This document shows, one piece after another, positions 13,898 through 20,109 of a DNA stretch of 20,277 nt. Location of the stretch: positions 1 to 20,277 of the IMG/VR virus record IMGVR_UViG_3300006190_000024. One strand, written 5' to 3'. The position numbers and the translations under genes are program-made. Positions within the stretch are counted from its first letter, which is position 1. Each line of letters starts with the position of its first letter. Origin of the DNA: a virus. The notes under the pieces are model-generated. The model searched no databases, was not told the DNA's origin, and saw nothing but the letters and a program-made list of their open reading frames with translations.

Positions 13898-13956
13898 TGA
13901 CGCCACCCCTTAAAAGGTGTATTCTACGCACTAGGAAAGACAAGGACTTGCTATGA
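13897..13956 (+). CDS. Candidate 19-residue basic peptide bridging core and fibre genes
   Basis: The bases between the core gene and the fibre form one short open frame encoding MTPPLKRCILRTRKDKDLL. Its ATG overlaps the upstream TAA (TAATG), its TGA overlaps the fibre ATG (ATGA), and GGAGG at 13883-13887 stands 9 nt ahead of it. Overlap at both ends plus a good ribosome site suggest a translated mini-gene or a coupling leader for the fibre. Against it: the ribosome site lies in codons needed by the core protein, and such a short frame can arise by chance. Its function is unknown. Confidence 0.4.
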   Translation: MTPPLKRCILRTRKDKDLL

Positions 13957-16298
13957 CAGTATCATCGAGCACCAACCGAGCAAGCTATAGCGGCAATGGA
14001 ACGCTTACGACTTTTGCCTACGGTTTTAAGATCTTTGACCAGGATGAGTTGACAGTCATCCTTCGATCAAGCACCGGCGTCGAGACGGTTCAAACGCTTA
14101 CAACACACTATACTGTAACAGGTGTAGGTGCGGCAGGGGGCGGCAACGTAGTGTTCGGAAGTGCTCCTGCGTCTGGCGTTACCATTGTTATTTTGCGCGA
14201 GTTGGATCTTAAGCAAGGTTTGAACTTGGTTCCCAACGATCCCTTCCCAGCGGAATCGCTAGAAAGCAGCTTGGACAAGCTGACATTTATGGTGCAGCAG
14301 CATAACGAAGAGCTTGGCCGGACGATCAAGGCATCGCGAACAAACGTGCTTGCTGGCTCTGAGTTTACAATCCTAGCAGCGGATCGTGCCAATAAAGTAT
14401 TTTCTTTTGACGGATCTGGGGATCTGGCTATTACTCAAGAACTTGGCACTTTCAAAGGGAATTGGGCCGCTTCGACTGTTTACAAAGTTCGTGACCTGGT
14501 GAAGGACACCAGCACCAATAATATATTCATGGTAAAAACTGCGCATACTTCTAGCGGTTCTCAGCCAATCACCACCAACACGGATGCAGCGAAGTGGGAT
14601 CTGATTGTTAATGCAGCCGCAGCGACCACCAGCGCCACAGCAGCAGCCGCAAGCGAGACAGCCGCAGAGGCAGCAGAGGCAAACGCAGAGACTGCTCAAG
14701 CGGCTTCTGAGGCGGCGAGAGACGCAAGTGTTACTGCAAAGGATGCAAGCGTTGTTGCAAAGAACGCAAGCGTTGCCGCGAAAGATGAGAGCGTAACCGC
14801 TAAAAATTCTTCGGAATCTGCGCTCGCCAGCTTTACGGGTCAGTACGCCACAGGATCATCTGATCCTAGCAGCAATTTAAATACCGGCGATCTGTTTTTC
14901 AATTCGTCAACAAACCTGATGAAAGTTTACACCGGATCTGCCTGGGTAGCACTTACCCCCAGCAGCTCTGCCCAGACGAACATCAACGCACTTGCGGCTT
15001 CCGCCGTTATTGCCGACATGGCAATTTTAGGCACCGATGCTATCGTCGCTGACATGGCAATTTTAGGCACTGATGCCGTTGTTGCCGATATGGCGATACT
15101 GGCAACAGACGCAATTGTTGCAGATATGGCGATCCTCGGAACCGCTGATGTTGTTAATGACATGAATATCCTAGGTACTTCTGACGTTGTAACGGACATG
15201 AATGTTCTTGCCACTTCCGATGTCGTCACAGATATGAATGTTCTTGCCACCGCTGATGTAGTCAACGACATGAACGTGCTGGGTACTTCCGCAACCGTAA
15301 CTGCAATGAACCTTCTCGGCACCTCTGGCAATGTCACAGCGATGTCGAATGTTTCGGGAGCAATCTCCAACGTCAACACAGTTGCGGGAATAGCAAGCAA
15401 CGTTACGACTGTCGCTGGCGTCAGTTCTTCGGTGTCGGCCTTAGCAGCATCCGCAGTTCTTGCGGATATGGCGATCCTAGCGACAGACGCCATCGTTGCA
15501 GATATGGCTATCTTGGCTACTGATGCGATCGTTGCAGACATGGCGATTTTGGCAACCGACGCCATTGTTGCTGACCTAGCGATACTAGCCACAAGCGATG
15601 TCGTAACGGACATGAACGTGCTTGCCACTTCAGACGTAGTTAATGACATGAATGTGCTTGGCACTTCGGCGAATGTCACAGCAATGTCAAACGTGTCAGG
15701 CAGCATATCCAGCGTAAACACGGTGGCGAGCAACCTTGCTAGTGTAAACAGCTTTGCAAACACATACCGCATTGCGTCAAGCGCCCCAAGCTCTAGCTTG
15801 AACACTGGCGATTTGTACTTCAATACCTCAACAAATGTCGTCAATGTTTATAACGGAAGTGCCTGGGTTGCTGCTTATGCGTCCCTATCGGGCGCGCTCA
15901 CAGTCTCTAACAATCTTTCGGATCTAGCAAACGCAGGTACAGCCCGTACCAATTTAGGGCTTGGCAGTGCCGCGACCACGGCTTCAACGGCCTACGCTCC
16001 TGCTGCTGGTAGCTCCAATGTGGTCACGACAGGCGCTTTGAACAGCGGTTCAATAACATCTGGCTTTGGCACTATTGATATTGGTTCCTCTTCCTTTACA
16101 ACAACAGGAACAGTGAACTTTGGTAGCTTGGCAGATGGTACGATTACCGTGACAGCATTTGTCGATGAAGATAATATGTCAAGTGACAGTGCCACCCTAG
16201 TGCCGACACAACAATCGGTAAAAGCTTACGTAGACAGTTCTGTTGCTACTGCAGCCACAAAAGGCTTTGCTATCGCCGCAGCAATAGTATTTGGATAA
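13953..16298 (+). CDS. Tail fibre with T7 gp17-type N-terminus and 12-residue repeats
   Basis: A 781-residue fibre. Residues 1-150 match the T7 tail fibre N-terminal domain that binds the tail (FAYGFKIFDQDELTVIL, HYTVTGVG, VQQHNEELGR). Residues 220-290 are an Ala/Glu coiled coil ending in heptads. Residues 300-334 carry a TGDLFFNSST...YTGSAWV motif. Two blocks of 12-residue repeats follow (351-470 and 501-584), then a second TGDLYFNTST...YNGSAWV motif (607-641). The C-terminus has a segment common in marine phage fibres (SATLVPTQQSVKAYVDSSV). Ribosome site AAGGA is at 13942-13946. The role is host recognition; the receptor is unknown, and the final part may instead dock further fibre subunits. 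Confidence 0.9.
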   Translation: MTVSSSTNRASYSGNGTLTTFAYGFKIFDQDELTVILRSSTGVETVQTLTTHYTVTGVGAAGGGNVVFGSAPASGVTIVILRELDLKQGLNLVPNDPFPAESLESSLDKLTFMVQQHNEELGRTIKASRTNVLAGSEFTILAADRANKVFSFDGSGDLAITQELGTFKGNWAASTVYKVRDLVKDTSTNNIFMVKTAHTSSGSQPITTNTDAAKWDLIVNAAAATTSATAAAASETAAEAAEANAETAQAASEAARDASVTAKDASVVAKNASVAAKDESVTAKNSSESALASFTGQYATGSSDPSSNLNTGDLFFNSSTNLMKVYTGSAWVALTPSSSAQTNINALAASAVIADMAILGTDAIVADMAILGTDAVVADMAILATDAIVADMAILGTADVVNDMNILGTSDVVTDMNVLATSDVVTDMNVLATADVVNDMNVLGTSATVTAMNLLGTSGNVTAMSNVSGAISNVNTVAGIASNVTTVAGVSSSVSALAASAVLADMAILATDAIVADMAILATDAIVADMAILATDAIVADLAILATSDVVTDMNVLATSDVVNDMNVLGTSANVTAMSNVSGSISSVNTVASNLASVNSFANTYRIASSAPSSSLNTGDLYFNTSTNVVNVYNGSAWVAAYASLSGALTVSNNLSDLANAGTARTNLGLGSAATTASTAYAPAAGSSNVVTTGALNSGSITSGFGTIDIGSSSFTTTGTVNFGSLADGTITVTAFVDEDNMSSDSATLVPTQQSVKAYVDSSVATAATKGFAIAAAIVFG
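14724..14807 (+). repeat. Heptad repeat, four copies of ASVxAKD/N
   Basis: Four consecutive 7-residue units read ASVTAKD, ASVVAKN, ASVAAKD and ESVTAKN (fibre residues 258-285). The spacing of Val and Ala fits a trimeric coiled coil at the end of the fibre's helical stalk. Codons differ between units, so the DNA is less repetitive than the protein. Confidence 0.85.
15003..15362 (+). repeat. Fibre 12-residue (36-bp) repeat block 1, about 10 units
   Basis: Units such as AIVADMAILGTD and DVVTDMNVLATS follow one another without gaps from residue 351 to 458, and a degenerate tenth unit (GNVTAMSNVSGA) ends at 470. Hydrophobic residues recur at positions 2, 3, 6 and 9 of each unit. At DNA level the units use different synonymous codons, for example GCC/GCT/GCA for Ala and TTA/CTG/CTC/CTA/CTT for Leu. 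Confidence 0.92.
15453..15704 (+). repeat. Fibre 12-residue (36-bp) repeat block 2, about 7 units
   Basis: A second block (residues 501-584) repeats the plan of the first: units of the A-I-V-A-D-M type, then units of the D-V-V-T-D-M-N type, then the same closing unit (ANVTAMSNVSGS). The shared order shows that a whole block was duplicated, or that both blocks were built by the same rule. A 30-residue spacer separates them. Confidence 0.9.
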
Positions 16299-16310: not shown

Positions 16311-16673
16311 ATGACCGTAGTTAATCTCATCAACGTAGCAACTATTACACCAGTAGTTAATGCGGGTGCAGTAACAAACAGTAGAGCATCTATCATTGAT
16401 GTTGCTGCTGATAAAGTTGCGAAAGTAAACTCACTAATCATTGCAAATGTGGATGGCACTAATGCCGCAGACATCACAGTTGAAGTGAGTATAGATAATG
16501 GCTCAAGCTATGTTGCTATAGCAAAAACTATATCTGTGTCTACCGACTCATCTTTAATCGTAGTGGGTAAAGACAATGGTTTTTACTTAGATGAGACTGA
16601 CATCCTAGCGGTTACAGCTTCTGCCGCTGATGACCTGACTTACTTAGTTAGCTATGAATTGATGACAGACTAA
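16311..16673 (+). CDS. Beta-rich virion-associated protein of unknown function
   Basis: A 120-residue protein rich in Val, Ile, Thr and Ala with alternating hydrophobic patterns, suggesting a beta-sandwich: VNSLIIANVDGTNAADITVEV, then a Ser-Asn-Gly-rich turn, ISVSTDSSLIVV, FYLDETDILAVTASA, and a final YLVSYELMTD. Similar small proteins lie next to fibre genes in other phages, so a minor tail or fibre-docking role is plausible. I do not recognise a named family. AAGGAAAA (16298-16305) is the ribosome site. The stop TAA shares a base with the next gene's ATG, tying it to the paralogue that follows. Confidence 0.65.
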   Translation: MTVVNLINVATITPVVNAGAVTNSRASIIDVAADKVAKVNSLIIANVDGTNAADITVEVSIDNGSSYVAIAKTISVSTDSSLIVVGKDNGFYLDETDILAVTASAADDLTYLVSYELMTD

Positions 16674-18140: not shown

Positions 18141-18410
18141 ATGAAGACTATTACCGATACCGCCACAGCCTTGAGCAAGTTTCTTGTTGCTGATGACGTT
18201 GTGATTACGCACATCAACGACAACACGCAAATCAAAGTTGGCGAGCCAGCCATGTACATCATCGGCTGTATGGATGTTACCAACGCCACGATCTATGAAA
18301 ACGTGACAAACGCCCCCGAAGATTGGTACGGTAACAGGTACTTTTTTGATGGCACTGATTGGACTGCAAACTCTGACTGGGTAGACCCCCGCATCGAAGA
18401 CGGGGAGTAA
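18141..18410 (+). CDS. Small tail-region protein of unknown function
   Basis: An 89-residue acidic protein starting MKTITDTATALSKFLVADDVV, with IKVGEPAMYIIGCMDV in the middle and a Trp-rich end (APEDWYGNRYFFDGTDWTANSDW). Proteins with this DW-G...FDGT-W ending recur near fibre genes of marine phages as far as I recall, without known function. It lies between two members of the MRTI paralogue group but shares neither of their caps. Its ribosome site, AAAGGA at 18128-18133, is formed by the last codons of the upstream gene. Fibre chaperone, adaptor or structural subunit are all possible. Confidence 0.65.
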   Translation: MKTITDTATALSKFLVADDVVITHINDNTQIKVGEPAMYIIGCMDVTNATIYENVTNAPEDWYGNRYFFDGTDWTANSDWVDPRIEDGE

Positions 18411-18414
18411 TCAC

Positions 18415-18627
18415 ATGCGCACCATTGGTAATCCCAGCCCTACTGCACGGAAGCTGAACGCCATTGCCAGTGGTGTGCAAGGCGAGGTAAACGACAGGCA
18501 GGCATGTTTAACCGCTGGCCAGAGCCACTTTGTGCAGACGGGTGGTGCGCTAACCACAACCTCTGGAAATCCGAGTGTCTTCGCTGGCACAGCCATATCG
18601 GCAACAAATATTATCGTGAAAGGCTAG
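18415..18627 (+). CDS. Mini-paralogue: N-cap start joined to C-cap, no propeller
   Basis: A 70-residue protein that begins MRTIG, keeps an IASG motif at about residues 17-20 like the ASG of the N-caps of its large neighbours, then passes directly to the C-cap pattern (LTAGQSHFVQTGGALTTTSG, then PSVFAGTAISATNIIVKG). The seven-repeat centre and the front half of the C-cap are absent. The frame is intact, codons are diverged from both paralogues, and GGGGAG (18402-18407) is a good ribosome site. This argues for a functional small gene rather than a fresh deletion relic. It may be a minimal fibre-tip or adaptor unit. Function unknown. Confidence 0.7.
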   Translation: MRTIGNPSPTARKLNAIASGVQGEVNDRQACLTAGQSHFVQTGGALTTTSGNPSVFAGTAISATNIIVKG

Positions 18628-18630
18628 AGC

Positions 18631-20109
18631 ATGAGAACTATCCCAGAGTTTAAAAAGGGTACGCATAGGGCCAAGGCTTCTGGTGCGTTACCGAATGGTA
18701 AGGCTGTTGTGGTTAATGCTGACGGGACTGTGAGTGTTATTTCGGAAACAAGTGCAAGTGCGAGCGTTGGTTCTTCAGCAGTTTTAGATGTTGCTTGCGA
18801 GGGTAATAACAATGCAGTTTACGATGTTGCTAACAACAAAACTGTGTTTTTTTACAGGGGAGCTTCCAATGCGGGTAAATGCGTTGTCGGAACAGTAGCA
18901 TCAAACAATACTGTAAGTTTTGGCTCTGTTGTTACTTTTGAAGATGGTAGCGTTGATAGTTCTGTATCCGCTGTTTACCATGCAGCGGCAGGTAAAATTG
19001 TTGTTGTTTTCAGGGACGCCGGAAATTCGGGTTACTCTAAAGCTAGGGTCGGAACCGTCAGTGGAACCTCAATTTCCTTCGGAACGGTAGTCACGTTTTA
19101 TAACGGAGGTTCTTCACAAAAACAAAGTGCAGTTTATAGCAGTGGTTCTGAAAAAATTGTTGTTGCCTACACTAATAATTCTACCGCCGATGGGTTTTCT
19201 AAGGTTGGTACGGTGAGCGGAACAGACATCAGTTTTGGAAACCAAGCAACTTTTGAATCAGGAGAAGTCGGTGGGAATGAAATTGGTATGTCCTATGATA
19301 GCAATGCTGACAGGGTTGTTTTTAGCTACCGAGATCAAAACAATTCTGGATATGGTACTGCTATAGTGGGAGCAATAAGTGGGACAAATATCTCATTTGG
19401 AAGCAAGGTTGTTTTTAAAAGCGCCACTACCTATGGTCATAGTTCGGTGTATGACCCAGTAGCAACGAAAGTTTTATTGTCGTATCGGGGTAGTGGTATA
19501 GAGGCTATAGTGGGAACTATAGACCCTTCAGACAACTCAATTTCTTTCGGCTCATCGGTTACTGTAAAAAGTGATGGGGTAGAAACTGCATCGACCTTAT
19601 ACGACGCTAACGCTAAATTCGTAGTTGCTGTTTATGGTTACGCTACTAATGACTCAAAAGTTGCACTGAAAAATGGAACTATAAGCGGAACTTCTGTGTC
19701 TTTTGGCTCAGAAATAATGTTAGACAATACAAGCGGTAATTCTACTACAATAGCTAATGGACCAAAAGGCTCTGCTTATGATAGTTCTTTAGGTAAAATT
19801 GTAAGTTCATATACCACTAACCCAAACGGCGATGGCCCAGTGGGAAAGTACGTTGTGAGTCAAAACGCCTTCACCGCCACCAACCTCACCGCAGAGAACT
19901 ACATCGGCATATCCAAAGGCGGTGCATACGCATCAGGCTCAAGTGCAACGGTAGACATTATCGGCTCGGTTAGTGAGAACCAATCCAGTCTAACGGCAGG
20001 CCAGAGCTACTTCGTTCAGACAGACGGGACGATAGGATTAACGGCTGATGATCCAAGCGTCTTTGCAGGTACGGCAATATCTGCTACAAGACTTATAGTT
20101 AAAACATAG
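18631..20109 (+). CDS. Seven-repeat propeller-like protein, paralogue 2
   Basis: A 492-residue protein with the same plan as paralogue 1. N-cap: MRTIPEFKKG, then ASGALPNGKAVVVNADGTVSV. Centre (about 57-415): seven repeats with the pattern VYD/YDS...KIVVAY, VGTVSGT, SISFG and F-x-S/D-G, more diverged from one another than in paralogue 1. C-cap (419-492): ENYIGISKG, SSLTAGQSYFVQTDGTIGLTADD, then AGTAISATRLIVKT. AAGG at 18620-18623 is the ribosome site. The two centres differ in sequence while the caps are conserved, as expected if caps mediate assembly and the propeller meets a variable target. That functional reading is inference. Confidence 0.75.
   Translation: MRTIPEFKKGTHRAKASGALPNGKAVVVNADGTVSVISETSASASVGSSAVLDVACEGNNNAVYDVANNKTVFFYRGASNAGKCVVGTVASNNTVSFGSVVTFEDGSVDSSVSAVYHAAAGKIVVVFRDAGNSGYSKARVGTVSGTSISFGTVVTFYNGGSSQKQSAVYSSGSEKIVVAYTNNSTADGFSKVGTVSGTDISFGNQATFESGEVGGNEIGMSYDSNADRVVFSYRDQNNSGYGTAIVGAISGTNISFGSKVVFKSATTYGHSSVYDPVATKVLLSYRGSGIEAIVGTIDPSDNSISFGSSVTVKSDGVETASTLYDANAKFVVAVYGYATNDSKVALKNGTISGTSVSFGSEIMLDNTSGNSTTIANGPKGSAYDSSLGKIVSSYTTNPNGDGPVGKYVVSQNAFTATNLTAENYIGISKGGAYASGSSATVDIIGSVSENQSSLTAGQSYFVQTDGTIGLTADDPSVFAGTAISATRLIVKT

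What the first reader, a model, noticed from the sequence alone, without database searches (positions are those of the whole stretch)
18415..18627. 70-residue mini-gene that is only the end caps of the larger paralogues
The product keeps the MRTIG start, an ASG motif and the C-cap, but no propeller. It is in frame, has its own ribosome site, and its codons are diverged from both relatives. This suggests maintained function (adaptor, competitor or assembly partner) rather than decay.
Basis: partly seen in the sequence, partly recalled or inferred. Interest (0 to 1): 0.6.

Follow-up and report, generated by a model that had tools for sequence, protein, structure and literature searches.

The report
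Shrunken copy of propeller-carrying phage protein
This 70-residue phage gene is the middle member of a conserved three-gene set of probable virus-surface proteins; it has lost its propeller and also half of the small barrel that carries it, so it is more likely a decaying leftover than a maintained mini-protein, although intact propeller-free versions do exist in other marine phages.

Summary
The ORF at 18415-18627 is real. It is the orthologue of the middle gene (slot B) of a three-gene paralogue set found across marine phages in IMG/VR. The N- and C-"caps" are two halves of one small β-barrel with the phage cement/decoration ("β-tulip") fold, and the propeller is an insert in one of its loops. 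Genes come with zero (~117 aa), one (~480 aa) or two (~860 aa) propeller-sized inserts.

Clean propeller-free homologues exist and are scattered over the tree. They keep the whole barrel (AlphaFold2 pLDDT 87.5, pTM 0.77). The window's gene does not: it lacks 47 further residues carrying strands 2-5 of 8, and its own model is poor (61.0, 0.37). No other viral contig shows its junction. Its C-terminal part has six residues seen in none of 218 relatives and is the fourth-oddest of 219; the two long paralogues in the same genome have none. Branch dN/dS is 0.52 against a background of 0.21; neither 1 nor the background is rejected.

Best reading: a slot-B gene cut by in-frame deletion and now under relaxed constraint. 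The more interesting result is the propeller-in-cement-barrel family and its recurrent empty versions.

The parts
18415..18627 (+). 70-aa slot-B gene: N-arm and strand 1 (residues 1-20) joined directly to the last ~50 residues of the barrel; propeller and strands 2-5 absent
18472..18477 (+). deletion junction (IASG|VQGEV); no repeat longer than 1-2 nt is evident when compared with L028
18402..18407 (+). GGGGAG ribosome-site-like sequence, inside the end of the upstream 89-aa gene
   Evidence: equivalent position in L028
16673..18136 (+). slot A paralogue, 487 aa: barrel halves flanking one propeller-sized insert
18141..18410 (+). 89-aa gene that accompanies slot B (87 aa in L028, L085, L088)
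18631..20109 (+). slot C paralogue, 492 aa: barrel halves flanking one propeller-sized insert
16311..16673 (+). 120-aa gene that precedes the paralogue set; similar genes in L085 (124 aa) and L088 (120 aa)

Best explanation
Three paralogues (slots A, B, C) each consist of a small beta-barrel of the phage cement/decoration (beta-tulip) fold, with a beta-propeller inserted in the loop between strands 3 and 4 of that barrel. The barrel probably docks each protein on the virion and the propeller probably makes outward contacts such as host-surface binding (both inferred). In this phage the slot-B gene suffered an in-frame internal deletion of about 1.2 kb (one or more steps) that removed the propeller and strands 2-5 of the barrel. 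What remains is an expressed-looking but probably unfolded or unstable 70-residue product under relaxed constraint: an early-stage relic kept open by chance and by its position between two needed genes.
For: Orthology and position: slot-B signature in the N-arm and C-part, with the order A - 87/89 aa - B - C as in other contigs. Clean alignment as one internal deletion. The caps form one domain: cap-only L088 is predicted at pLDDT 87.5, pTM 0.77 with 8 strands, and its best solved-structure matches are phage capsid cement/decoration chains (top rows Z 12.1-9.4 over 102-107 residues); weak Pfam/PHROG matches agree. The mini, modelled with the same 36-sequence set, gives 61.0 / 0.37 and keeps only the parts that form strands 1, 6, 7, 8. 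Relaxed constraint: six never-seen residues including D43G, at a site that is D or N in all 218 others, and 4th-oddest of 219, while slots A and C of the same genome have none. End branch 0.48 against 0.11 and 0.034 for slots A and C. Pairwise dN/dS 0.27-0.46 against 0.10-0.20 for the nearest slot A/C comparisons. No second copy of the junction in IMG/VR. A comparable cap-only fusion in another phage (L085) is frameshifted.
Against: The ORF is open. Under neutral drift with 15-23 substitutions the chance of staying open is 0.54-0.40 for substitutions alone and 0.26-0.04 with indels at assumed rates, so openness mildly favours constraint. Branch dN/dS is 0.52 and is not significantly above background (2 delta lnL 2.65). 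The N-arm is well kept (17 of 20 residues identical to the slot-B consensus). An AlphaFold2 model of a 70-mer from a shallow alignment can be poor without the protein being unfolded. Part of the divergence may predate the deletion.
Confidence: 0.66

Rival explanations
1. Maintained mini-protein: the N-arm plus half barrel still works as an adaptor, filler or competitor that occupies a docking site of the full slot A/C proteins without displaying a propeller, perhaps completing its barrel with strands of a partner.
For: Open ORF with start and ribosome-site-like sequence; N-arm conserved; branch dN/dS point estimate below 1; whole-barrel cap-only relatives exist and recur.
Against: Half the barrel is missing, residues seen nowhere else occur at near-invariant sites, and no other contig has this form.
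Confidence: 0.2
2. Assembly or sequencing chimera: the metagenome assembler joined the start and end of a normal slot-B gene.
For: The record is a 20,277-base IMG/VR virus contig; several cap-only relatives sit at contig ends (L028, L102, L161).
Against: The junction is not at a shared repeat, and the sequence on the C side is itself strongly diverged from every known slot-B end, which a chimera of normal genes would not be.
Confidence: 0.07
3. The gene is a truncated duplicate of one of its two neighbours made inside this phage.
For: 56% identity to both.
Against: Its N-arm and C-part match slot B of other phages better (77-80% identity to L018 and L028), and it sits in the slot-B position.
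Confidence: 0.03

Closest known systems
Phage cement / head decoration proteins of the beta-tulip type (PF09956 Phage_cement_2, PF22758; lambda gpD, phi29 gp8.5 base, Pam3 and XM1 capsid chains)
   Same: The cap-only relative L088 has this fold over 102-107 residues at Z 12-9; weak sequence matches to PF09956 (best 8e-4) and PHROG 122 head decoration (0.025). Published work groups gpD, P74-26 gp87 and phi29 gp8.5 as beta-tulips (PMC11821841).
   Different: All sequence matches are below Pfam's curated cut-offs. Long members carry a propeller-like repeat domain inside the barrel. The set follows a tail-fibre gene in this window, so head or tail location is open. The 70-aa gene has only half of the fold.
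PHROG 4368 (unknown function)
   Same: Only phage family matched clearly by cap-only relatives (3.8e-10 for L088) and weakly by the mini itself (9.8e-4).
   Different: The family profile is 840 positions long and has no assigned function.
Slot-B propeller proteins of marine phage contigs (e.g. L005, L011, L018, L090)
   Same: Same genomic position, N-arm and C-part.
   Different: They are 464-488 aa, with a complete barrel and a propeller-sized insert.
Cap-only slot-B proteins L088 (117 aa) and L157 (118 aa)
   Same: No propeller, next to long paralogues.
   Different: Complete barrel with the insert cleanly absent at the loop; the window's gene lacks 47 residues more.

Membership tests
Phage cement/decoration (beta-tulip) fold, for the cap domain of this family | fold match to solved decoration/cement proteins over most of the domain | tested here: met
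   L088 model: Z 12.1 (8qsy_JJ, 105 residues), 10.2 (XM1), 10.1 (Pam3), 7.0 (phi29 gp8.5)
Phage cement/decoration (beta-tulip) fold, for the cap domain of this family | sequence score above Pfam gathering cut-off (PF09956) | tested here: not met
   best 20.1 bits against a cut-off of 24 (L102); so the claim is a shared fold, not membership of PF09956
Phage cement/decoration (beta-tulip) fold, for the cap domain of this family | binds the capsid lattice | not testable with these tools
   needs virion structure or mass spectrometry
Cement/decoration fold, for the 70-aa product itself | complete set of barrel strands | tested here: not met
   strands 2-5 of 8 fall in the deleted part; own model pLDDT 61.0, pTM 0.37
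Slot-B member of the three-paralogue set | slot-B N-arm and C-part sequence | tested here: met
Slot-B member of the three-paralogue set | position between the 87/89-aa gene and slot C | tested here: met
Slot-B member of the three-paralogue set | carries a complete barrel, with or without a propeller | tested here: not met
   it is a defective or reduced orthologue rather than a full member
   only ~117-aa forms found, none of ~70 aa
   0.52; 2 delta lnL 1.17 against 1 and 2.65 against background

The most novel reading that the evidence does not exclude
Propeller-free slot-B proteins are a recurrent, selected 'blank' state of a cement-barrel display system, used to fill or block docking sites without presenting a propeller, and the window's 70-aa form is an extreme blank that works as a half barrel completed by a partner's strands.
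Probability: 0.1. Interest if true: 0.6.

Novelty: new variant of a known kind. Interest (0 to 1): 0.3.

Why it matters
On its own the 70-aa gene is a gene relic or near-relic, which is ordinary in phages. The context is worth more: a set of three phage proteins in which propeller-like inserts of varying number (0, 1, 2) appear to be plugged into a loop of a cement-like barrel, with clean empty versions arising several times. If the propellers bind hosts, this is a modular display system in which gain, loss and doubling of the displayed head can be read directly from sequence, and cap-only forms are natural controls for what the barrel does alone.

Tried and rejected
Mini as a shortened copy of a neighbour: rejected by slot-B orthology. 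'No propeller-free relatives exist': my first look at the C-cap survey suggested this because most such ORFs sit at contig ends; printing the short ORFs and a pattern search across the loop junction found them, two complete. Searching bacterial genomes for the C-cap: none confirmed. Phage records: only distant matches. Sequence search of solved structures with A5: only chance antibody matches. Alignment A4 with separate N and C fragments was discarded because MAFFT laid N-caps over C-caps. The structural second look at the mini's own low-confidence model gave only Z 2.8 and 2.6, which says little. A mixed cap tree has few columns and some rows with non-cap sequence; it is used only for scatter and end-branch lengths. 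Literature searches for DUF2190/cement with propellers found no description of this family in the papers held.

Full report
What is there. The ORF 18415-18627 encodes 70 aa with its own ATG and a GGGGAG ribosome-site-like sequence. It lies in a podovirus-like contig whose tail tubular protein B is about 55% identical to that of Pelagibacter phage HTVC010P and its relatives. It sits between an 89-aa ORF and a 492-aa ORF; a 487-aa paralogue lies upstream of the 89-aa ORF. The three share MRTI and a conserved C-terminus. The window is a 20,277-base virus record.

A three-slot family. A profile of the C-terminus found 267 relatives in IMG/VR; the best 80 were kept, and further scans added more. 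Many contigs show three successive paralogues: slot A, then an 87-89-aa gene, slot B and slot C (87 of 160 locus strands hold three; many of the rest are cut by contig ends, and loci overlap). Lengths cluster near 480 aa and 860 aa, with a few at 750. The N-arm identifies the slot. The window's 487-aa gene is A, the 492-aa gene is C, and the 70-aa gene has the B signature (MRTIGNPSPTARKLNAIASG against MRTIGTPSTQARKLNAIASG; VQGEVNDRQ against VQGAINDRQ).

The caps are one domain. Complete propeller-free genes exist: L088 117 aa and L157 118 aa; L028, L102 and L161 are of the same kind but cut by contig ends; L085 is a fusion of slot-B start and slot-C end with a shifted frame near its start. In all of these (DGTVSVV-TSL-NLTSENYIG, DGTVSAV-GGG-NLTAENYIG and so on) the insert is absent at the same loop. 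L088 is predicted confidently (pLDDT 87.5, pTM 0.77, eight strands). Its best solved-structure matches are chains of phage capsids, mostly cement or decoration proteins (HFTV1 Z 12.1, XM1 10.2, Pam3 10.1, T1 9.4, phi29 gp8.5 7.0). Weak sequence matches to PF09956 and PHROG 122 point the same way. Published work calls this fold type the beta-tulip (PMC11821841). Viral predicted structures with the same domain include many tail-fibre-like proteins, so capsid against tail location is not settled.

What the mini lost. Aligned with cap-only and full-length relatives, the mini is residues 1-20 plus about 68-117 of the 117-aa barrel. The missing 47 residues hold strands 2-5. Its own model, from the same 36 sequences, is poor (61.0, 0.37). 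The junction has no evident repeat. Compared with a ~485-aa slot-B gene, about 415 codons are gone (inferred from lengths). One or two deletion steps cannot be told apart.

Selection. Leave-one-out scoring of 219 C-ends puts the mini fourth oddest, with six residues seen in no other (E24, A30, C31, G43, S50, N65); slots A and C of the same phage have none. Its end branch is 0.48 against 0.11 and 0.034 for them. Pairwise dN/dS to the nearest slot-B genes is 0.27-0.46, against 0.10-0.20 for the nearest slot A and C comparisons. A branch model gives 0.52 against a 0.21 background, with 2 delta lnL 1.17 against 1 and 2.65 against background, so neither is rejected. Neutral simulation gives a 0.54-0.40 chance of an open frame after 15-23 substitutions, and 0.26-0.04 once indels are allowed at assumed rates. 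Together: relaxed constraint is likely and complete neutrality is not shown.

Recurrence. Cap-only genes are scattered over the tree: seven label changes, at least six forced by well-supported branches, although the alignment is short. Four are slot B in different clades (L028, L088, L102, L157). Clean loss of the propeller is therefore a repeated event that leaves the barrel whole. The window's gene is the exception in that the barrel is cut too, and no other contig was found that encodes its junction peptide (NAIASGVQ was one of the scanned patterns).

Verdict. It is the slot-B gene of this phage after an in-frame deletion. Shown here: orthology, position, extent of the loss, unusual residues, absence of siblings in IMG/VR at this sensitivity. 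Inferred: that the product does not fold, that the barrel docks on the virion, and that the propeller binds something outside.

Noticed in passing
L085:4980-5324 (also L163): Slot-B start fused to slot-C end without propeller, frame shifted near the start relative to L028: a cap-only gene that looks broken, in a 42-kb contig.
   Followed up: partly
L001:1620-3872; L049, L079, L122 (~750 aa): The C-part of the barrel is preceded by a second, different repeat domain (GLAFNADGTRLFV..., NHL-like by eye, seen in L001) just before LTAGQ; the ~750-aa genes share odd C-part starts.
   Followed up: no
L088:112-8297: Slot A is absent: order is 120-aa gene, 87-aa gene, cap-only slot B, slot C. A 992-aa tail-tip (J-like, by eye) protein lies upstream, so the set seems to occur in phages of other tail types too.
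   Followed up: partly
window 13953-16298: Tail-fibre gene (N-terminus matches PHROG 1640 tail protein) with a long run of degenerate repeats (ADMAILATDAIV...), sub-threshold match to Pfam LED repeat.
   Followed up: no
L005-L161, many loci: Slot genes come with lengths fitting 0, 1 or 2 propeller-sized inserts (~117, ~480, ~860 aa) with few intermediates.
   Followed up: partly
window 16311-16673 and 18141-18410: Small genes of 120 and 89 aa travel with the three-slot set in other contigs; no family of known function.
   Followed up: no
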